Positions 32,366 through 43,714 of a stretch of DNA of 64,000 nt are shown in pieces. The first letter of the stretch is position 1; each line of letters starts with the position of its first letter. Below the pieces are notes generated by a model that worked only from the letters and a program-made list of their open reading frames with translations, did no database searches and was not told the origin of the DNA. The position numbers were made by a program, and so were the translations under genes. Source of the DNA: Candidatus Schekmanbacteria bacterium (lineage in GTDB: Bacteria; CSSED10-310; JACPHN01); contig JACPHN010000150.1 of assembly GCA_016188575.1 (NCBI GenBank), positions 1-64,000 of the forward strand. Direction: 5' to 3'.

Positions 32366-34174
32366 ATGGTTGGAGAAGTCTCGTATTGCGACCTGTTTGG
32401 AATCACGGAGGAAAGTCTGGAGCTCCGGCGGCAGTTCATCCGCCTCGACGACTCGGATCGCGAGCTGATCGAGCGGCTGATTCCGTGGGCGGAGGAGGTC
32501 GCCGCCAAGATCGCAAGAGAGTTTTACGACTGGCAGTTTGCGTTCCCGCCCACGCGCACCTTTTTCGAGCGCTTCGCGCAGGTGCGCGGTCTGACGATCA
32601 AGCGGCTGCGCGCCCAGCTCGAAAAGACGCAAGCCAGCTACTTCAAGGGAGTCTTCCTGGGGGCGCAAAGCAACTGGGGGTTGGACTACATCGAAAGCCG
32701 GCTGCAGGTAGGCAATGTTCACGACAGAATCGACCTCCCGTTCAAGTGGTACGTCGGAAGCTATGCGGAGTACGCGGCGCTGACCCGGAAGCACCTGGCT
32801 TCGGCCAAGCTGGACGAGGAGACGGCGCAGCGCGCTCTGGTCGCGATCGAGAGAGTGTTCAACCTCGACATGCAGACAGTCGGCGACGCGTATCTGCTCA
32901 GCGTGCTCGGTTCCATGGGGCTCGCGGTTGATCAGATCGCAACGACCGCCGACGAGGATCGCACCGAGCATCTCGCGACGACCAAAAGCTGGATCACTAC
33001 TCTGGTGCGGCAGGCGGACGCGATCGCGGCCGACCATCTCGACGATCAGGCGTTAGCGACGCGGGTACCGGGCCGCCTCGGCGATTCCTTCGGCACCATG
33101 GTCGCCAACTTGCAAGGGTTTGCGGGCCAGTTGAAAGCGGTGGCAAGCGGGGATTTCGCTGCCAGTGACCCCCGCACGGGCAGCGCCACGGATGGCACCG
33201 TCGGCGTGCTGATGTCGGCGACCCGCGACACCGTGAGGGTGCTTTCCCGGCTCCTGGAAGAGACCAATCACCTCATCGCGGCCGCGCGTGAGGAAAAGTT
33301 CTACGTCCGCCTCGATCCCAAGGGCTTCCTGGGAGGGTACGCGCGCCTGTGCGAGGGGCTCAACGGCCTGCTCGATACCGTCATGGAGATCATCGGACAG
33401 GGCGCCACGCGCCTGGGGGGCTCGTCCGAGGAGCTGGCGGTCATCATCGACGAGATGGCCGTGGCCACCGGCGAGACGTCCAAGCGCGCCGGCTCAGTCA
33501 GTGCCACGATCCAGCAGGTGCGCGAAGCGAGCGTGCAGATTGCCGCAGCGGTCGAGGAGCTCAGCGCTAGTACGCAGGAGATCTCACGGAACACGGCCGA
33601 GGCGGCGCGTGAAGCCGGGTCCGCCGTGGACTTCGCGCGGCAAACGGAAGAAGCCATGACACGGCTCGGCCAGAGCAGCCGTGAGATCGGCAAGGTGGTC
33701 AACGTCATCACTTCGATTGCACAGCAAACCAAGCTCCTGGCGCTGAACGCCACCATCGAGGCGGCCCGGGCGGGCGAGGCTGGTAAGGGTTTCGCCGTCG
33801 TCGCGGGAGAGGTGAAGGAGCTCGCCAAGGAGACCGCGGCCGCCACCGACGAAATCGGCGAGAAGATCGAGGTGATTCAAGAAGATGTGCGCATGGTGGT
33901 CAGCGCCATGGGCGAGATCACCCAGAAGATCAACCTGATCAACGACATGCAGACCGGCATCGCCGGAGCCGTCGAAGAGCAGGCCGTCACCTGTGGTGAA
34001 ATCGCGCAAAACCTGGGTGAAGCCAATCAGGCGATTACCAGCATCGCCGAGAGCAGTGACAACATGGCCAATGCAGCGCGCAAGGCGAGCACGGCCACGG
34101 AAGAGACCCGCAAGGCCGCCGGCGAGCTCGCGAGCATGGCGTCGCAGCTCCAGCAGCTCGTGACGCGCCACTAG
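32366..34174 (+). CDS. Soluble globin-coupled chemoreceptor (HemAT-like, oxygen/gas sensor)
   Basis: A 602-residue methyl-accepting protein without membrane segments. Residues 1-190 form a protoglobin-type sensor: [19 protein letters not shown] is followed by [19 protein letters not shown], where the histidine is at the proximal heme-ligand position. A HAMP-like linker follows, then the signalling hairpin with the conserved tip [20 protein letters not shown] and [19 protein letters not shown]. The asparagine usual at QTN is lysine here. It likely senses oxygen or another gas and sets CheA activity. No C-terminal pentapeptide for CheR binding is visible. Its place between cheW and cheB ties it to this pathway. 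Confidence 0.88.
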
Positions 34175-34188
34175 GCGAAGGAACCGAC

Positions 34189-35259
34189 ATGAACGATGCA
34201 ATCCGCGTGTTTCTCGTGGACGATTCTGCGCTCGTCCGCCGGCTCTTGCGCCGGACGATGGATGAGCAGAGTGATCTCGTCGTTTGCGGCGACGCCGCGG
34301 ATGGGCGGATGGCCGTCGAGATGATCGGGCGAAACGTTCCTGACCTTGTCGTGCTCGACGTGGAGATGCCCGTCATGGACGGGATCACCGCGCTCGGCCT
34401 CATCAAGAAGCAGCACCCCAAGCTCCCCGTCATCATGTTCAGCACGCTGACATCGCGCGGCGCCGCGGTGACGATCGAGGCGCTCAGTCGCGGAGCGGCG
34501 GACTACGTCACCAAGCCAACTGGAAAGGCGAGCCTCGAGGAATCGATCGCGGGTATTCGCGACGATCTCATCCCGCGCATCCGCGCGCTGGTTGGCACGG
34601 CGCGTAGGGCAGCGAGCCCCGACCGCGCTGCGGCCGCAGCAGCGATACCCGCACTGCTTCCCAAACGCCGGCTCACGTGTCAGCCCGCGGCGATCGTTGC
34701 CATCGGCGTCTCGACCGGAGGCCCCGATGTGCTGCGGCAAATTCTTCCCGCCCTGCCGGCGACCTTGGCCGCGCCCGTGGTCGTCGTGCAACACATGCCC
34801 AAGATGTTCACAACGCTGCTGGCATCGAGCCTCGACGCGCGCTGCCCCCTGACCGTCCGCGAGGCGGCCGGTGGGGAAACAGTCGCCGCCGGCTCCGTGT
34901 GGATCGCCCCAGGCGGGTTGCATCTCGAAGTCGAGCGGAAGGATCGGACCGTGCTGTTGAAAACGCACACCGGCCCGCCGGAAAACTCATGTCGCCCCGC
35001 TGTCGACGTCTTGTTTCGCTCCGTGGCCAAGGCCTACGGGGAGCGCGCGCTGGCGGTCGTGTTGACCGGGATGGGCAGCGACGGCGCCAGTGGTGCCACG
35101 CACATCTACAACGGCGGTGGCCAGGTCCTCGTGCAGAACCAGGAGACCAGCGCCGTCTGGGGCATGCCCGGCGCCGTCGTGGAGAAAGGTGTTGCCGACG
35201 CCGTGTTGACACCCGCCGAGCTTGGCCGCGAAATCATCAGACGCGTCGCCGGCGCGTGA
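34189..35259 (+). CDS. cheB: Chemotaxis protein-glutamate methylesterase CheB
   Basis: A 356-residue response regulator with an enzymatic output. The receiver domain (VFLVDDSALVRRLL, LVVLDVEMPVMDG with the phospho-accepting Asp, and the later SRGAADYVTKP) is followed by a linker and the methylesterase domain with its catalytic triad: Ser in GVSTGGPDVL, His in VVVQHMPKMF and Asp in VLTGMGSDGA. It removes methyl groups from the receptor, giving adaptation. It lies 14 bases after the receptor gene and 16 bases before cheR. Confidence 0.95.
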   Translation: MNDAIRVFLVDDSALVRRLLRRTMDEQSDLVVCGDAADGRMAVEMIGRNVPDLVVLDVEMPVMDGITALGLIKKQHPKLPVIMFSTLTSRGAAVTIEALSRGAADYVTKPTGKASLEESIAGIRDDLIPRIRALVGTARRAASPDRAAAAAAIPALLPKRRLTCQPAAIVAIGVSTGGPDVLRQILPALPATLAAPVVVVQHMPKMFTTLLASSLDARCPLTVREAAGGETVAAGSVWIAPGGLHLEVERKDRTVLLKTHTGPPENSCRPAVDVLFRSVAKAYGERALAVVLTGMGSDGASGATHIYNGGGQVLVQNQETSAVWGMPGAVVEKGVADAVLTPAELGREIIRRVAGA

Positions 35260-35275
35260 TCATGGGAGGCGGTCG

Positions 35276-36121
35276 ATGAGCATGCTGCCGCTGTTCAGCG
35301 CGTCTGAGGATGCGGCGGCGTTCATTCGCCGCATCGTGCGCGAGGAAACCGGCGTCAACCTTGGACCGGACAAACAATACCTCATCGACACCCGTCTTCA
35401 GCCCATTCTGCGCCAATACGGGCTGGCTTCGCACGGAGACCTCGTCGGCAAGCTCAGAAACGGCGCCGCCCGTGACGTCCTGCGGCGCGCGGTCATCGAG
35501 GCGCTGTTGACCCCGGAGACTTCCTTCTTCCGCGACCGGCACGTTTTTTCTTACCTCGAGAATCTCCTGCTTCCCAGTGTGATCGCGTCGCGCGCGGCGG
35601 AACGACAGCTCCGGATCTGGAGCGCGGCGTCGTCGAGCGGCCAGGAGATCTACAGCCTGGCCATGCTGCTCGCCGAGAAATTCCCGCAGCTTCGCGGATG
35701 GACAGTTTCGCTGCTGGCGACGGACGTCTCGGAACGGATTCTCGCGTATGCCAGGGCGGGGTGTTATACGCGATTCGAGGCGCAGCGCGGCCTCACGGAA
35801 GAGCAGAGGCGCAAGTACCTCATGGAGCGGGATGGGGACTTCCAGGTGCGCAAGGACTTGCGGCAACTGGTGGATTTCAGGATTCTCAACCTCACCGCGA
35901 AATGGCCGCCGCTGCCGCCGATGGACATCATCCTGCTGCGCAACGTGCTGATTTACTTCAATGACGAGACGCGGCGGGATATCTTTGCGCAGGCTGCCTG
36001 TGCGCTACGGCGCGATGGGGTGTTGATCCTGGGCGCCAGCGAGACGATCGTGCGGTCGGAATTCGGGTTCCGCCCGCGCCTGGGCACAGCGCCTGGGGTC
36101 TACGAGCGCACGGACGGTTGA
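35276..36121 (+). CDS. cheR: Chemotaxis protein methyltransferase CheR
   Basis: A 281-residue enzyme that methylates receptor glutamates with S-adenosylmethionine. The N-terminal helical domain (IRRIVREETGVNL, LLTPETSFFRD) is followed by the Rossmann domain (RIWSAASSSGQEIYSLAML, LLATDVSERIL) and MDIILLRNVLIYF. The ATG at 35276 was chosen because a GGGAGG box lies 7-8 bases upstream and the protein then has the normal CheR start. It ends the chemosensory gene set; no cheY or cheD is found next to it. The end faces the hybrid kinase gene 28 bases away. Confidence 0.93.
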   Translation: MSMLPLFSASEDAAAFIRRIVREETGVNLGPDKQYLIDTRLQPILRQYGLASHGDLVGKLRNGAARDVLRRAVIEALLTPETSFFRDRHVFSYLENLLLPSVIASRAAERQLRIWSAASSSGQEIYSLAMLLAEKFPQLRGWTVSLLATDVSERILAYARAGCYTRFEAQRGLTEEQRRKYLMERDGDFQVRKDLRQLVDFRILNLTAKWPPLPPMDIILLRNVLIYFNDETRRDIFAQAACALRRDGVLILGASETIVRSEFGFRPRLGTAPGVYERTDG

Positions 36122-36148: not shown

Positions 36149-37885
36149 TCACTGCTGCCAGCGGCTGACCAGCTCGCGGAGCTCTTTCGGCGATACGGGT
36201 TTGGTCACGAAGTCGTCCATGCCCGCGGCCAGACACCGCTCGCGATCTTCCGGCAGGGCGTGCGCAGTGAGGGCGATGATAACCGCCCTGCGCCGGGGTT
36301 CCCGCGCTCGGATCTGGCGCGTGGCCTCGTAGCCGTTCAGCACCGGCATCTCGCAGTCCATGAGCACCAGGTCGAAGTCGCCGCTGCCGGCCGCGTCGAC
36401 GGCCTCCCGGCCATCGGCAGCCATCGCGACCTGATGTCCGGCTCGCTTCAGAACCGCTGCGACCAGTTCTCGCGACGTTCCGTTGTCTTCGGCGACGAGG
36501 ATGCGCCACGGCCGCGCCGCGACCTTCGCGGCAACGCCCGTCGAGGGCGCGGACGGCGCCGCGGCAGCCGCCGGCGGCCGGCGAAAAGGGAGCACTACCG
36601 CGAAGGTGCTGCCGGCGTCGGGAAGACTGCGCACGGAGATCTCCCCCCCCATGAGCGCGACGAGCTCCCTGGCGATGGCGAGCCCAAGGCCGCTCCCCCC
36701 CGCCGGGCGCGGCGCCGCGCCGCATGCCTGGGCAAACGGCTCGAAGACAGCGGCCTGGTCCGCTTCGCAGATTCCGATTCCCGTGTCGCTGACCGTGAAA
36801 CGCACCAAGACCTCATCCGCGGCCTCCGCTTCGAAATCGGTCCGGAGGGTAATCTCTCCCTTGTTCGTGAACTTCACTGCGTTACTCACCAAGTTCGCCA
36901 GCACTTGCCGGAGGCGCCCGGGGTCGCCGAGCACCGTGGCAGGGGCGGGGTAGCCCGCAGATGTCCTGAGCGTGAGCCGCTTGCGGGCCGCCACGGGGCC
37001 GTACAGCATCGCGACGCCCTCGACCACCTGCGCGGGGTCGAATGGCTCACTCGCTACGGCCAGGCGATGCGCTTCGAGAGCAGAAAGGTCGAGGACATCG
37101 TTGAGAATGGACAAGAGGCTCCCGGAAGACGCCACGATGGCCTCTCCCCAGGCCTGCTGCTCGGCGCGCAGACCGCTTTCGACCAACAGCTCGGCCATCC
37201 CCAGCACGCCGTTCATGGGCGTGCGAATCTCATGGCTCATGTTGCGCAGGAACGCGCTCTTGGCTCGGGTCGCGGCGTCGGCGGCTTCCTTCGCGCGGGC
37301 CAGCTCCTCGGCCTCTCTCTTGCGCTCGGTGATGTCCTCTTTGAAGCTGATATATCCCAGCACCGTGCCGTCGGCGGCGCAAACGGGGGAGATGGAGGCC
37401 ATCTCCCAGTAGAGCTCGCCGCTCTTCTTGCGGTTGAGGAGCTCTCCGCGCCAAACCTGCCCGGCCGACAGGGCGCGCCACATCGCCTCATACACTGCGC
37501 GGTCCATCAGGCCGGACTTGAGGATGCGCGGGTTCTTCCCCACCGCCTCCGCTGCGGAGTAACCTGTGGTCCTGGTGAAGAAAGGGTTGACGTACTCGAT
37601 GCAGCCGGCGGCATCGGTCATGACAATGGAGGCGGCGCCTTGCTCGACGGCCGTCCACAGCTTGGCGCACAGGCTTTCCATGCTCTGACGTGCGGCGACC
37701 TGTGCGCGCAGCGACGCGTCGCGCGCCGCGCGCTGGCTACGCAACACCCGCGTTGCCTCGCGCTCTCCCGAGGCCTCCGAAATGTCGACGACGACGCACG
37801 AGTCCGGCGCAGCCGCCGCCGAGCCGGAGCCATCTGACCCGCCGCCGGCGCTCGTGGTCTCGGAAAAAAAGGATTCTTCACTCAT
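36149..37885 (-). CDS. Hybrid sensor histidine kinase (PAS, HisKA, HATPase, REC), soluble
   Basis: A 578-residue kinase with no membrane segment. It has an N-terminal Ala/Gly-rich region, a PAS domain at residues about 75-190 (AASIVMTDAAGCIEYVNPFF, then GYISFKEDITERK), the phosphorylated His218 in FLRNMSHEIRTPMNGVLGM, an ATPase domain (VSNAVKFT, DTGIGI, GGSGLGLAI) and a C-terminal receiver (RILVAEDNGTSREL, DLVLMDCEMPVLNGYEA). It converges on cheR and may modulate the same behaviour. The start codon is remarkable: its ATG overlaps the TGA of iscB in an ATGA, with the ribosome-binding site inside the iscB coding sequence. The start was chosen from this overlap and the absence of kinase sequence upstream. 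Confidence 0.9.
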   Translation of the reverse strand: MSEESFFSETTSAGGGSDGSGSAAAAPDSCVVVDISEASGEREATRVLRSQRAARDASLRAQVAARQSMESLCAKLWTAVEQGAASIVMTDAAGCIEYVNPFFTRTTGYSAAEAVGKNPRILKSGLMDRAVYEAMWRALSAGQVWRGELLNRKKSGELYWEMASISPVCAADGTVLGYISFKEDITERKREAEELARAKEAADAATRAKSAFLRNMSHEIRTPMNGVLGMAELLVESGLRAEQQAWGEAIVASSGSLLSILNDVLDLSALEAHRLAVASEPFDPAQVVEGVAMLYGPVAARKRLTLRTSAGYPAPATVLGDPGRLRQVLANLVSNAVKFTNKGEITLRTDFEAEAADEVLVRFTVSDTGIGICEADQAAVFEPFAQACGAAPRPAGGSGLGLAIARELVALMGGEISVRSLPDAGSTFAVVLPFRRPPAAAAAPSAPSTGVAAKVAARPWRILVAEDNGTSRELVAAVLKRAGHQVAMAADGREAVDAAGSGDFDLVLMDCEMPVLNGYEATRQIRAREPRRRAVIIALTAHALPEDRERCLAAGMDDFVTKPVSPKELRELVSRWQQ

Positions 37886-39222
37886 CGGGTCTCCGGCGCG
37901 GAAACCTCGGCATTCATGCCGGGGAGGAAGCGCCTCTTTCCTTGGTTGTAGGTGTAGCCGTCGGCTCGTTGGAGCAGGCGGCAGTGTTTGTGCGAAATGC
38001 CCTGGACAGTACCAGCGACCGTTTGGATGTTGAAGCTGCCCGTAGCACGTATCGCAACGCGCCCAACGTACGTGCCGACTTTTTTGCCTTGTGATACAAC
38101 CGCGCGGACCAAATCGCCGGTTGCAAAACCGTGTACACGCTTCTGCCGCATCAAATAGCCGCGCGGAAAGCCAAACTTGTCGACGCGCGTTCGCTGATAG
38201 CTGCCACGGCCACTGGCCTTGATCGCCAGTACGGGCTGCTGCCAACCCACGACGCGCTCGACCTCGCCCACGCAGACTGCGTCTAGCACGTGCGCCTTCG
38301 GGATACCGAATCGTGTGCGGTTCCACTTGGTTCGGCCGCCGCTACCGACCTGGAGGTCCAGGCCGGTGCTTGCGAGCGCTTGCCAGAGAACACGCCGTGT
38401 GACATTGACCGCGGCCGCGGTTGCCAGCGGCGCTTTCGCGGTCGCGAGAACATGCGCCAGTCGCTTGCTGTCGCGTTTGAGGAGCTCGCGGACGTCGTGA
38501 CTGCCCTTGCGTTCGTTACACGGCCGACAGGCGAGCGTGAGGTTGCACGCCCGATCGCTGCCACCACGTGACTTCGGCACGATGTGCTCGATCTGTAGCG
38601 GTACGTTTTCGGCGTCGCAATAAGCACAGTGCCGACCCCACTTTTCGAGCAGGTACTCGCGCAGCTCGTAGCCGGCGAGCTCGCCTTGCTGGTACTCGAC
38701 ACCCGCGATCTCTGGGTTCTGCATCGCCTGGGTATCGAAGCGCACGGTTTCGACGGACACGGCGCTGATCGGGCAAAGCTTTCGATAGCGTCCAACCCAG
38801 GCCAGCACGTTGTCGAGCCGGCAGCGAAGACTTGGTGGCAACCATCCCTCGCGCCGGCGCCGGTTGTTGAATCGCGGTGCTCGATAGCGCAGGTTGGTCG
38901 ACCGCCGGCGCCGGCGATAGTTGCTCCGCTGCTCGACGTGCTTGCGCACGACCTCACCCCGGTGCTCGATCTCGGCCAGATGCAGAACATGTTGCGTGCT
39001 ACCGTCCTCACGGGCGAGCGCCACCCCGGTCGTCTTGGCCCCCGGATCGAGTTTCAGTCGCACCGGCTCTACCACGCTGTCCTCGAGGACGCGATCGACC
39101 AGGCGGATCGTAAACGGGTGCAGGCGATGCACCCGTGCCCGGCCCGCCGCGAGCAGCTTGCGCGCTCGCTTCTCCGTGCACGGCATCAGCGGCCGTTTGC
39201 GCCTGTCTAACACGAAAACCAT
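37882..39222 (-). CDS. iscB: IscB RNA-guided nuclease (OMEGA system)
   Basis: A 446-residue protein with the full IscB layout. The N-terminal PLMP domain (RRKRPLMP, residues 7-14) is followed by RuvC-I (KLDPGAKTTGVAL, Asp59), an arginine-rich bridge helix (about residues 88-124), RuvC-II (SAVSVETVRF, Glu158), an HNH domain (CAYC at 199-202, His213 in IEHIVPKSRGG, Asn227, CRPC at 232-235), RuvC-III (HVLDAVCVG, Asp314) and the C-terminal LLQRADGYTY region. All expected catalytic residues are present, so it should cut DNA when guided by an omega-RNA. IscB proteins are IS200/IS605-type passengers and ancestors of Cas9. No TnpA transposase is nearby. The ATG at 39222 begins the PLMP domain. The stop overlaps the kinase start. 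Confidence 0.93.
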   Translation of the reverse strand: MVFVLDRRKRPLMPCTEKRARKLLAAGRARVHRLHPFTIRLVDRVLEDSVVEPVRLKLDPGAKTTGVALAREDGSTQHVLHLAEIEHRGEVVRKHVEQRSNYRRRRRSTNLRYRAPRFNNRRRREGWLPPSLRCRLDNVLAWVGRYRKLCPISAVSVETVRFDTQAMQNPEIAGVEYQQGELAGYELREYLLEKWGRHCAYCDAENVPLQIEHIVPKSRGGSDRACNLTLACRPCNERKGSHDVRELLKRDSKRLAHVLATAKAPLATAAAVNVTRRVLWQALASTGLDLQVGSGGRTKWNRTRFGIPKAHVLDAVCVGEVERVVGWQQPVLAIKASGRGSYQRTRVDKFGFPRGYLMRQKRVHGFATGDLVRAVVSQGKKVGTYVGRVAIRATGSFNIQTVAGTVQGISHKHCRLLQRADGYTYNQGKRRFLPGMNAEVSAPETR

Positions 39223-39550
39223 CGTTACATCCAATGCCTCCGAAGAGGCCCCCACAAAGGGCTCGTGACGCCGCCAAGCTGGCTTGCTCGACGGTCTCCC
39301 CTCGACCCTGTTGGACAGCAGCCCTGTGTGCACGCTCGTTTCGGACCGACCCTACGGCTTGTCTGCAACGCGCACTTACAGAATCCGAGGCTGAGGAAGC
39401 ACCTCGGAGTGTTACTTTTGCTCTGTGTCCAACGTAGATGTTTCAACGATTGCCAATCTCAACAACTTGGTCTGGTCAACATGCAAGCCTCGCGGCTTGC
39501 GACCTTCCTCCGGAGCAAGCTCCGGCCTTCAGGCCGGGGTAGTTGACCAT
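39223..39550 (-). ncRNA. Candidate omega-RNA (HEARO-type) of IscB
   Basis: The stretch directly upstream of iscB on the same strand, where IscB guide RNAs are encoded, folds well. An 8-base closing stem, TGGTCAAC (39549-39542) with GTTGACCA (39480-39473), encloses a GC stem CCGGCC/GGCCGG with loop TGAA (39537-39522) and a perfect 7-base stem with GCGA loop (39500-39483). A third stem, CGGAGC/GCTCCG (39524-39511), overlaps the first and may be an alternative fold. In known systems the guide is the host sequence just outside the element, 5' of the scaffold; here that would be the bases just right of 39550. The left and right limits are estimates. Confidence 0.65.
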
Positions 39551-39777
39551 AGCGGTCATCCATCTCCATCGTGCACGTCATGAATGGAGGTCCAGACTGC
39601 CACGACAGGAGCAGTAGGCTTGCCCATGCGGGCTGTGAGGGTGTGCCACGTTGCCCGGGCCAACACGGTGCTGCACCTGACTGCCTACAGCGTCCGCTCA
39701 TCCCTCCCTCCCGCTTCCGGCAGCAGGTGAGCTTCGACGTTCTACGCACGCGTGTTCGCGGCTCTCTGGCGGCGATC

Positions 39778-39895
39778 CTATCGCGTGGCGGACAGGCTGT
39801 CAATCTCGAGCCGCCGGTACGCCTCGAGGAATCGATCGAGGTTGCCTCGCACAACGTCCCCTGGTCCTTTCGGCGCTCTGCAATCTGTGCAAGAC
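39778..39895 (-). pseudogene. Possible 3' remnant of an unknown gene
   Basis: One minus-strand frame reads CTDCRAPKGPGDVVRGNLDR and then a helical end FLEAYRRLEIDSLSATR before a TAG at 39780-39778. It has the look of real coding sequence, but it is out of frame with the hsdM fragment just upstream and has no start. It could be the tail of another gene joined here by deletion. The remaining bases from 39551 to 39777 hold no recognisable gene. Confidence 0.3.
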
Positions 39896-39929
39896 CGAAG
39901 CAGACCGTTCCTGGAAAGTCGGAGCAGGA

Positions 39930-40292
39930 GTCGAAGTCGAGCTGCTCGAGCACCTCGCGCATGTTCGGCGAGAAGCCCGCGAGGTAATTGCGGAGGTTCG
40001 CGGCGAGGTGAGGCGCGTCGCCGAGCAGTGCGTCGAAGTCGTGGAGCGAGGTGTTGTAGAAGGCGTAGCCCGACGCCTTCCGGAGTTGCGGCTCGCGGTT
40101 CTGGAGGCCCAATGCCTGGAGCTTGGCGTTCACCTCGCGCACCTTGGTACGCGTCGGCTCGCGGACGCAGTCGATGCGGCGGAGCACCGTGAATGGCAGG
40201 ATGACGTCCTGGTACTTACCGCGCTTGAAGTGGTCGCGAATGAGGTCGGCGACCGACCAGATGAAGGTGACCTTCTCGGCGAAGTTCCCCAT
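39930..40292 (-). pseudogene. hsdM: Truncated type I restriction-modification methyltransferase (hsdM fragment)
   Basis: The first 121 residues match the N-terminal domain of HsdM: MGNFAEKVTFIWSVADLIRD, then KRGKYQDVILPFTVLRRIDC, ASGYAFYN, DAPHLAANLRNYLAGFSPNM and REVLEQLDFDS. At that point the match ends and the frame runs on into unrelated sequence. The catalytic methyltransferase domain (NPPF motif) is absent, as are hsdS and hsdR. It is therefore a dead remnant, probably left after deletion or insertion at this spot. It lies on the same strand as the IscB element, about 380 bases upstream of the candidate omega-RNA. Confidence 0.8.
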
Positions 40293-40439
40293 GGGCGCCT
40301 TCTCTCAGCTCTCCGCGCCGGTCGAGCTCGCCGTCGAGGTGCTCTTGATATCACGGGACCGGTGCGGATGTCTACCGGTGCGGCGCGCAGTGCTCCACTT
40401 ACGGCCGAATAGTCGGTGGTATCAGGAAGACGGCGCCCC

Positions 40440-42731
40440 CTACTCCTCCAGGCGAAAGCGCGCGGCGGACTCTCGCAAGCCCCGAGCCATGTCGCTGACG
40501 AGCTGCGCAGATGCGGCAACCTCGGCCACCTGCCCGCGCATGTCGCCACTGATGTTGGCGATACGCTCGATGTCGCCCGCGACCTGGCTCGACGTGGTGG
40601 CCATCTCCTCGGCCGCGGCAGCGTTTTGCTCGGCAACCTCGCTCACGTTGCCGATCGCGGCAACCAGCATCTGCGCCGAGGAGCTGATCTGGCCCGCGGC
40701 ATCAGAGATGGCGTCGAGCTGCGTCTGCACCGCCTCGGCGGCCTGCAGGATCTCGCCGAGCGACTGACCGGCGCGGCGCGCGCCGCTCACTCCGTGGTCG
40801 ACCTCGCTCAGGACGTTGTCCATTGCGGCCAGCACATCCGCCACGGAGGAGAGCGTGCCGCGGATGATGCCGGCGACGTCACCCGCCTCGGACGCGGACT
40901 TCCTGGCAAGATTGCGGACCTCGCCGGCAACGACGGCGAAGCCTCTGCCGTACTGCCCCGCCCGGGCCGCCTCGATGGCGGCATTGAGCGCCAGCATGTT
41001 GGTTTGCGAGGCGATGTCGTCTATGGTTTCGACAATCTGGCCGACGCGGGCGGTGTGCGCGCTCATCGCCTTGATGTGTTGCGCGGCCTTGTCGACGCTG
41101 CTGCGGATGGCATCGAGCCGCTGCATGTTGCTGTGCACCATTGCCGCGCCGGCGCGGGCGAGCTCTGCTGCGGCCGTCGCGTTCGCCGCGCTGGAACGTA
41201 CGCTGCGCACCACCTGCTGGACAACAGCGTCAATCTCACCGGTGAGCTCGGAAAGATCGTGAATGGACGCCGTTTGCACGTAGGTGCCCTTGGCGACACT
41301 ATGGATGGCGAGCGACAGTTGCTCTACCGACACCGCCGATTGCCCGAGGTTGCGGGATTGCTGGCCCATGGCGGCATCCGCCTGCACGGCGGTGCCTGCC
41401 AACTGCACCGCCGCAACCTGCAGGGCATGGGCATTCCGGGTGAGCTGTGCCGCCAACTGGTGCAGATTTCTCGTCATCTCCTGAAACGCTCGACCGAGAG
41501 CATCGCGGGTGTTTTGGGGAGCGACGTCCACCGTGAGGTCGCCGCCGGCAATTTGCGCGGCGGCCTCCGCCATCGCGCCGAGATAGCGCGTCATGCGCGC
41601 CAGCGCCTGCCCCAGAGCATCGTCTTGCGAGCGCGATTGGACGGCCACGGCCACATCGCCTCGGGCCACGTCGTCGGCGATCGCCGCCATCGCGTCGAGG
41701 TACTCATGCATGCGGGCGAAGGCATTTCCAAGCGCGTCGCGATCCGAGCACGGCCGCGTTTTCGCCGAAAGATCGCCGTGGGCGATGCGATCCGCGGCCA
41801 CGGCCATCGCCTCGAGGTATGCGGCCATGCGCTGAAAGGAGTGCCCCAGGACATCATGTTCCGAACGCGGCTGCAGCTCCACGCGCAAGTCCCCGGTTGA
41901 AATGCGCTCGGCCGCCGCCGCCGCTTGCCGCATGTACGCCACCAGCCCCCGAAAGGCGCCCGCAACGTTCGCGAATTCGATGCCGCCGCGCAAGCGGATG
42001 TCGTGGTCAAAACGGCCGTCGCTCAGGATCCGCGCGTCCTGTTGCAAGCTGTTGAGCGGGCGCAGCACCGCGAGGGTGATGCCGGCAAAAGCCAATGCGA
42101 CAAAGGCCGCCGCACTGCCGACCACCACCCCGAGCAGATTCAGAAAAGCGGCCCGCCGGTCCAGGTGCCGGCTGCTTTGATCGATCAGCGCTTCGACGAG
42201 CCCCAATGCGATGCGCTCACCGGCGCTGTCCCTGGCCAGGATCGGGTAGACGAACCCGTACCACTCTCCGTATTCGTCCGCGTACTCCACGCGGTGTGCG
42301 GAGGCGAGCTGCAAAAAGTCGTCGCCGAGGTGCTCGACGGCCGCGTGATGAGCCGCCGTGGCCGCAAAGAAAGGGTAGCCGACGCCCGTGGAGCTGTCGT
42401 CAACCCAGTAATAGAAGAAACTGTTCTCGCGGTAGTAGATCCCCAGCCACGCCAGGCCTCCCACGGTGACACATTGGTGCAGTACCGCCTTGACCGCGTT
42501 GTAGTCCGCCGTGTCGAGGTCAAGCGGAGCGCGGACGCGGCGCAGCGCGCTCTGATCGACCTCTTGAGCGGCCAGTCGCGCCGCCGCGAAGAGCCGTGCG
42601 TCGAGGTCGCGTCGCCATTGCTCGTCGTCATATTCGTACACGCGATATCCCGCGACGCTCACGGTGGCCACGCATAGTAGCACCAGCGGCGGCATGACCT
42701 TGGCTACGAGGGGCAGGCGGAGGCGACTCAT
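40440..42731 (-). CDS. Methyl-accepting chemoreceptor with a five-unit HAMP array
   Basis: A 763-residue receptor. A first membrane segment (about residues 8-28) is followed by a periplasmic sensor of roughly 150 residues rich in Tyr/Trp ([19 protein letters not shown]) and a second membrane segment ([20 protein letters not shown]). Then come one classical HAMP ([20 protein letters not shown]) and four further HAMP-like units of ~39 residues, each with the pattern A..I..GDL.V....S..D.LG.AF..M..YL. The signalling hairpin has the tip [20 protein letters not shown] and [20 protein letters not shown]. Its ATG overlaps the TAA of the NHL lipoprotein gene (TAATG), so the two are translationally coupled. 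Ligand unknown. A longer frame to 42851 is an overlap artefact. Confidence 0.9.
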
Positions 42732-43714
42732 TACGGACCCAGCTTTCGCCGCAACGTCCCGTCGGGCGCAAAAACCCACACCGCGTTTGCCAGGGCATCC
42801 ACCGCATAGACCTCGCCCTTGGCGCCCACGGCCAGATTCACGATCTGCCACTCTTGTTTTCGCGGCAGTGCGAGCTCACGCAGGAACTGCCCCGCGGCGG
42901 AAAAAGCCTGAATGCGCCGGTTCGCCATGTCTCCAACGTACACCGTGCCGGACGCGCGATCGACCGCCAGGGCAATGGGGTGCGCGAGCTCGCCGGGACC
43001 GCGGCCGTAGGCGCCGACGGTCTGCCGGTACGTCAGCTCCAGCTCGCCTGCCGGCAGGATCTCCAACTGGAACTGCTGGTAGTAGCTATTGGTGGAATCG
43101 AGCACGTAGACGAGGTGGCCGGGAGAGTGGACGGCCACGTCCGTCACTTGCAGAAACAGGCCCGCGCCGGTTCCCGCCTTGCCGAAAAATGTGCGCTGCA
43201 ACGTCCCGGCTGCAGCGAAGACGCGCAGCGTATTTGTCCCATTGTCCGCCACATAGACCCGCCCGTCGTCGTCGAGCGCGATCCCATAAGGATGCCGCTG
43301 CACGTCATCCTTGCCGTAATCGGCTCCCCCGATCTCGCGCAGAAGCTCGCCTTCGGGCGAAAAAACCAGAGCGCCGTCGTGCGCCCGATCTCTGCCGCCA
43401 TCGGCGGGGATCTTGTTGCACAGGTAGAGATTCCCGCGCGCATCGAGAGTCAGATCCCACGACTTGAACAGGTCGCCGCCGCGCGTGCCGAGCCGCCCGA
43501 AGGCGCCGAGCAGCTCGCCGCTCGCCGCGAGTCTTACGACGCGGTGATTGCCATTATCGAGCACATAGACGCTGCCGTCCGGCACTGCAGCGACGCCCGT
43601 GGGGCGATTGAGCGGCAGCGGTTGCCAGCAGGCAGCGCTCACCGCGCAGAGAAGCACAGCCAGTCCCGTACCCCTTCTGACTTTCGCCGCTGCAGCGCTT
43701 TCGCCGCTGCCCAT
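42731..43714 (-). CDS. NHL-repeat beta-propeller lipoprotein
   Basis: A 327-residue protein with a lipoprotein signal (hydrophobic [13 protein letters not shown]; the last cysteine would be lipidated). The rest is about six NHL repeats, each like [20 protein letters not shown] and [20 protein letters not shown], forming a beta-propeller. NHL propellers bind proteins, sugars or RNA; in the periplasm this one would be a binding module. Its stop overlaps the start of the chemoreceptor gene by one base, so the products are made together and may form a receptor-ligand-binding pair. The ATG start has no strong ribosome-binding site. Confidence 0.8.

What the first reader, a model, noticed from the sequence alone, without database searches (positions are those of the whole stretch)
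37882..39550. Intact IscB OMEGA element with a foldable guide-RNA locus and no transposase
The protein keeps every RuvC and HNH catalytic residue (Asp59, Glu158, His213, Asn227, Asp314). Upstream, where the omega-RNA should lie, an 8-base closing stem (39549-39542 with 39480-39473) encloses a 6-base GC stem and a perfect 7-base stem with a GCGA loop. If the scaffold starts near 39549, the guide would be about 16 bases outside it, GAGATGGATGACCGCT read on the minus strand from 39566 to 39551. No TnpA gene is near, so this may be a domesticated or stranded copy.
Basis: partly seen in the sequence, partly recalled or inferred. Interest (0 to 1): 0.75.

Follow-up and report, generated by a model that had tools for sequence, protein, structure and literature searches.

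The report
IscB element seated at start codons
An intact RNA-guided IscB mobile element, one of more than a dozen related copies in this genome, whose copies nearly all sit exactly at the start codon of a host gene, so that the stop codon of the element's own gene overlaps the start of the gene behind it.

Summary
In detail: an intact IscB with all named catalytic residues, and a HEARO omega-RNA upstream (91.5 bits, gathering score 83). The "domesticated or stranded" reading does not: the genome carries 15 omega-RNA matches and 33 IscB pieces, and one other copy shares the window's last 75 bases exactly, beside a different gene. Aligned copies place the element at 39547-37886, so the scaffold starts at 39547 (not 39549) and the predicted guide is ATGGATGACCGCTATG (39563-39548).

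The interest lies at the other end. All 16 readable right ends in this genome abut ATGA or GTGA, and in 13 that ATG opens a real host gene (crude null 10.6%, p about 9e-11). The target's ATGA is at once the iscB stop and the host start; in 12 of 16 the element brings its own GGAG just before it. In other lineages 18 of 34 junctions are start-like against 7% by chance, but left-flank Shine-Dalgarno motifs are not enriched. The TAM published for IsrB, NTGA, is the same motif. I propose that start codons serve as target and TAM, so that guide, omega-RNA, iscB and host gene share one transcript. Transcription, coupling and cleavage are untested.

The parts
37886..39547 (-). whole IscB/HEARO element, 1662 bp (left end at 39547, right end at 37886)
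   Evidence: left boundary from 9 aligned copies; right boundary from 16 right ends in the genome
39290..39547 (-). omega-RNA scaffold (HEARO, RF02033)
   Evidence: cmscan 91.5 bits, gathering 83, model 1-211
39548..39563 (-). predicted 16-nt guide ATGGATGACCGCTATG, host DNA just outside the left end
   Evidence: left boundary; only exact copy in the genome; the guide length of 16 nt is general knowledge of IscB, not measured
37882..39222 (-). iscB, 446 aa, RuvC and HNH residues intact; its stop codon TGA lies in the target ATGA
37905..37927 (-). right-end hairpin around CCCCGGCATGAATGCCGAGG, inside the iscB 3' end
   Evidence: sequence; hairpin kept with different stem letters in other copies
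37891..37894 (-). GGAG, Shine-Dalgarno-like, 5 nt before the host ATG, carried by the element
   Evidence: sequence
37882..37885 (-). ATGA: target site and predicted TAM; iscB stop and histidine kinase start in one
36149..37885 (-). host gene downstream: PAS hybrid histidine kinase (PAS, HisKA, HATPase_c, REC)
   Evidence: Pfam
39459..40292 (-). upstream ORF beginning with an HsdM N-terminal domain; truncated hsdM remnant whose frame runs into the element
   Evidence: Pfam HsdM_N, residues 10-121; ORF list

Best explanation
Shown: this is a copy of a multicopy, transposase-less IscB element (omega-RNA then iscB) that lies exactly in front of an ATGA start codon. The last iscB codons run into the target, so the four bases ATGA end iscB (TGA) and start the host kinase (ATG), and the element's own GGAG sits 5 nt before that ATG. 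Related copies do the same at other genes. Inferred: NTGA is both the transposase target and the IscB TAM, as published for IsrB. The 16 bases left of the element (the stretch in front of the old start codon, often holding its Shine-Dalgarno) become the guide, so IscB would cut any allele in which that stretch still abuts ATGA, and repair would copy the element back in. A start codon suits such an element because the guide lies outside it and must be transcribed from a host promoter, and because iscB and the host gene can then be read from one message by stop-start coupling, so the host gene survives. Movement is probably by a Y1 TnpA acting in trans.
For: HEARO match and IscB domains. 33 IscB pieces and 15 omega-RNAs in the genome. 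Sharp left boundary with unrelated flanks. All 16 readable own-genome right ends reach ATGA/GTGA within 3 nt; 13 open genes with Pfam domains, signal peptides or other complete-looking N-termini; an M50 paralogue aligns from residue 1. p=8.8e-11 against the window's start-like null of 10.6%. Left flanks of own copies have AGGA/GGAG/GAGG at -16..-5 in 9 of 14, against 3, 2 and 1 in three control windows. Empty sites in Pseudomonas plasmids; at one of them the start codon is annotated at the same ATG in the empty allele (L166, L167). Other lineages: 18 of 34 start-like vs 7.0%, p=1.2e-12. IsrB TAM NTGA or NTG (PMC9581776). dN/dS 0.14.
Against: No empty allele for the window site itself (no relative nearer than phylum). 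In other lineages about half the junctions are not start-like, left-flank Shine-Dalgarno is not enriched (6 of 42 vs 4, 3, 4), and one plasmid insertion sits at an internal in-frame ATG, codon 19. One plasmid insertion shows an apparent 4-bp ATGA duplication, which Y1 transposition would not predict. The window's left flank has no well-placed Shine-Dalgarno and adjoins an hsdM remnant, so its two flanks may not come from one insertion event. No RNA or protein data.
Confidence: 0.7

Rival explanations
1. Start-codon seating is only survivorship: the transposase inserts at any ATGA/GTGA, and insertions inside genes are purged, leaving start codons and intergenic sites. The anatomy is the same, but nothing aims at start codons.
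For: Other lineages show many junctions that are not start-like (16 of 34), and one at an internal in-frame ATG that leaves most of the gene readable.
Against: Intergenic ATGA sites should also survive, yet only 2-3 of 16 own-genome right ends lack a gene at the junction. The number of intergenic ATGA sites was not counted, so this argument is qualitative.
Confidence: 0.45
2. Domesticated or stranded single copy with a host function.
For: No transposase on the contig; intact protein under purifying selection; the stop-start overlap with a chemotaxis-cluster kinase could look like an operon.
Against: More than a dozen copies at unrelated genes, one with an identical right end at another gene; the stop-start overlap is a property of the element, not of this kinase.
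Confidence: 0.05
3. The ATGA is the element's own end rather than target DNA, so the element creates a new start codon wherever it lands.
For: All readable right ends show ATGA/GTGA.
Against: Empty alleles hold the ATGA without the element, and the genes have natural N-termini such as signal peptides; an M50 paralogue aligns from residue 1.
Confidence: 0.05

Closest known systems
HEARO / IscB (ISC) OMEGA elements
   Same: HEARO RNA, IscB with RuvC and HNH, guide taken from the left flank, usually without TnpA (PMC9755519). From memory, not verified here: Weinberg et al. 2009 reported ATGA/GTGA as HEARO integration sites.
   Different: Here the ATGA is mostly the start codon of a host gene, the target completes the iscB stop, and the right end brings a Shine-Dalgarno-like GGAG. 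I found no statement of this in the held papers, but three founding papers are not held.
IsrB nickase OMEGA systems
   Same: TAM NTGA or NTG, i.e. the letters of ATG/GTG/TTG start codons (PMC9581776)
   Different: IsrB lacks HNH; that paper does not mention start codons
IS900 (IS110 family) of Mycobacterium avium subsp. paratuberculosis
   Same: insertion motif CATGNNNNNNTCTCCTT, which reads as ribosome-binding site plus start codon on the other strand; PMC8141618 cites Doran et al. [quoted passage not shown]
   Different: unrelated DEDD transposase, no IscB, no omega-RNA; its hed gene depends on host start signals, whereas here the element's gene ends on the host start

Membership tests
IscB / HEARO OMEGA element | IscB protein with split RuvC, bridge region (RRXRR) and HNH | tested here: met
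   Pfam RRXRR and HNH, catalytic residues, alignment to solved IscB chains
IscB / HEARO OMEGA element | omega-RNA (HEARO) directly upstream, above Rfam gathering score | tested here: met
   91.5 bits vs 83
IscB / HEARO OMEGA element | mobile: several copies with sharp ends at different sites | tested here: met
IscB / HEARO OMEGA element | guide taken from the DNA left of the element, TAM on the right side | tested here: inconclusive
   anatomy and plasmid empty sites fit; no cleavage assay
IS200/IS605-type transposon with its own TnpA | Y1 TnpA gene inside the element | tested here: not met
   no PF01797 match on contig C5; eight elsewhere
domesticated OMEGA protein (TldR-like) | lost nuclease residues or fixed host linkage | tested here: not met
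   residues intact; copies at many genes

The most novel reading that the evidence does not exclude
A branch of IscB elements uses the translation start signal itself as its address: start codon as target and TAM, the stretch before it as guide, with the element built to end its own gene on the host's start codon. Insertion would then be near-silent, and guide, nuclease and host gene would share one transcript.
Probability: 0.4. Interest if true: 0.7.

Novelty: new variant of a known kind. Interest (0 to 1): 0.5.

Why it matters
IscB is the likely ancestor of Cas9. How such elements persist without a transposase of their own, and how a guide that lies outside the element gets transcribed, is not settled as far as I know. 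Start-codon seating would bear on both: the TAM is the host's start codon, and the host supplies promoter and message. It predicts which IscB copies are expressed and predicts TAMs from annotation alone, and it can be tested by a transposition assay and RNA sequencing.

Tried and rejected
Relatives: none closer than phylum, so no empty site for the window copy. Empty-site searches for three further plasmid insertions found no uninterrupted allele. Guide search: only the own site matches exactly; with up to 3 mismatches there are 63 matches against 44 for the reversed control, so no second target is claimed. The first right-end pattern mis-set several Allochromatium junctions at an upstream ATGG and was corrected by hand; the window junction is one base off and its row should be ignored. 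One own-genome right end (C136, L181) is too diverged to read and was left out of the 16. PGAP start calls on inserted alleles proved unreliable as evidence, since one insertion was inside a gene. The null is a crude ORF test, not gene annotation. Cyanobacterial and Streptomyces IscB loci did not show a clear ATGA right end, so the rule is not claimed for all IscB. Literature: no held paper found links IscB or HEARO with start codons, but Weinberg 2009, Kapitonov 2016 and Altae-Tran 2021 are not held.

Full report
Observation. The minus strand 39222-37882 encodes a 446-residue IscB; Asp59, Glu158, His213, Asn227 and Asp314 are present as stated, with RRXRR and HNH Pfam matches and alignment to solved IscB chains. 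The region upstream matches the HEARO covariance model over its full length, 39547-39290, 91.5 bits against a gathering score of 83.

Boundaries. The genome (9.2 Mb, 275 contigs) holds 15 HEARO matches and 33 IscB pieces, many at contig ends, as repeats do. Nine copies aligned in register share sequence from G39547 (GTCAAC) on and nothing to the left. The guide has no second exact copy in the genome. A second IscB subfamily, with left end GTCACCTTCTCC, is also present.

Right end. In the window the element ends at 37886, and the next four bases, ATGA (37885-37882), are both the stop of iscB and the start of a PAS hybrid histidine kinase. The same holds elsewhere: 16 right ends could be read, all reach ATGA or GTGA within 3 nt, and 13 open a gene with a recognisable, complete-looking N-terminus: hybrid kinase, glutamate-cysteine ligase, rhomboid, M50 protease, porin-like, radical SAM, cyclase-like, SnoaL-like, M64 peptidase, lipoprotein-like, phosphonate-binding-like, DUF4386 and response-regulator kinase. 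The M50 protein has a paralogue aligning from its first residue. Two right ends (C92, C66) do not open a gene and one (C142) is unclear. In the window 10.6% of [AG]TGA sites pass a crude start-like test; 13 of 16 has p=8.8e-11 against that. The 13 rests on my reading of N-termini while the null rests on an ORF test, so the p-value is indicative.

Left flanks. In this genome 9 of 14 left flanks carry AGGA, GGAG or GAGG at -16..-5 from the element, against 3, 2 and 1 in three windows further out, as expected if the element split a ribosome-binding site from its start codon. The element's own right end supplies GGAG before the ATG in 12 of 16 copies. The C152 copy shares the window's last 75 bases exactly and abuts a different gene, so the window's own element, or a very near one, moved recently.

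Other lineages. Among 80 genome loci and annotated plasmids, the right end has a hairpin and then, usually within about 15 nt, ATGA or GTGA. Of 34 loci with both ends, 18 are start-like against 7.0% of control sites, p=1.2e-12. Left-flank Shine-Dalgarno motifs are not enriched there (6 of 42). In one locus, L076, the pre-insertion sequence looks like a 4-base ATGA overlap between two genes, with a 797-codon frame running into the TGA.

Empty sites. For two Pseudomonas plasmid insertions, uninterrupted alleles exist (5 and 15 records). The TraU-nuclease site shows the element at the annotated start codon of the nuclease gene, with an apparent extra ATGA. The other insertion lies at an internal in-frame ATG, codon 19 of the annotated gene. 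So start codons are favoured, not obligatory.

Mechanism. The TAM published for DtIsrB is NTGA, and NTG for several relatives (PMC9581776). By the logic established for the related TnpB elements (PMC11870625), excision rejoins guide and TAM, the nuclease cuts there, and repair copies the element back. The IscB guide lies outside the element, so its RNA needs a host promoter; a start codon lies in a transcribed region in the sense direction by nature. That step is inference, as are coupling and mobilisation in trans. The genome has eight Y1 TnpA matches, none on this contig, and some of those elements have an end hairpin resembling the IscB right end.

Comparison. It is an IscB/HEARO element by the sequence features tested. 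ATGA/GTGA integration of HEARO was, as I recall, reported in 2009; I could not check this. IS900, an unrelated element, also targets translation start signals (PMC8141618), so the strategy has a precedent. What appears new is the link between the IscB target/TAM and start codons, and the element-borne features that suit it. Survivorship remains a serious rival to targeting, and only fresh insertions would separate them.

Noticed in passing
window 39459-40292 (-): Truncated hsdM remnant (HsdM N-terminal domain only) between a chemotaxis receptor and the IscB element; the left flank may come from a rearrangement between IscB copies.
   Followed up: no
window 32366-36121 (+) and 36149-42851 (-): Chemotaxis cluster: protoglobin-containing receptor, CheB, CheR, hybrid kinase, second receptor with HAMP domains.
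   Followed up: partly
L036, L038, L041 (Y1 TnpA loci, contigs C154, C160, C265): IS200-like TnpA elements; L038 and L041 carry an end hairpin resembling the IscB right end (CTCCCC...GGGG...GCGGCGAGACTT), a candidate transposase in trans.
   Followed up: partly
L076: IscB inserted in an ATGA overlap of two genes; the left end offers a TGA seven codons on in the frame that lost its stop.
   Followed up: no
L153 near 2212 and 3888: Apparent 4-bp ATGA duplication at the two ends of a plasmid IscB insertion, compared with empty alleles L166 and L167.
   Followed up: partly
L182 and L183 (contigs C142, C92): Short right-end remnants of the element (about 53 bases) next to ATGA, without the rest of iscB.
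   Followed up: no
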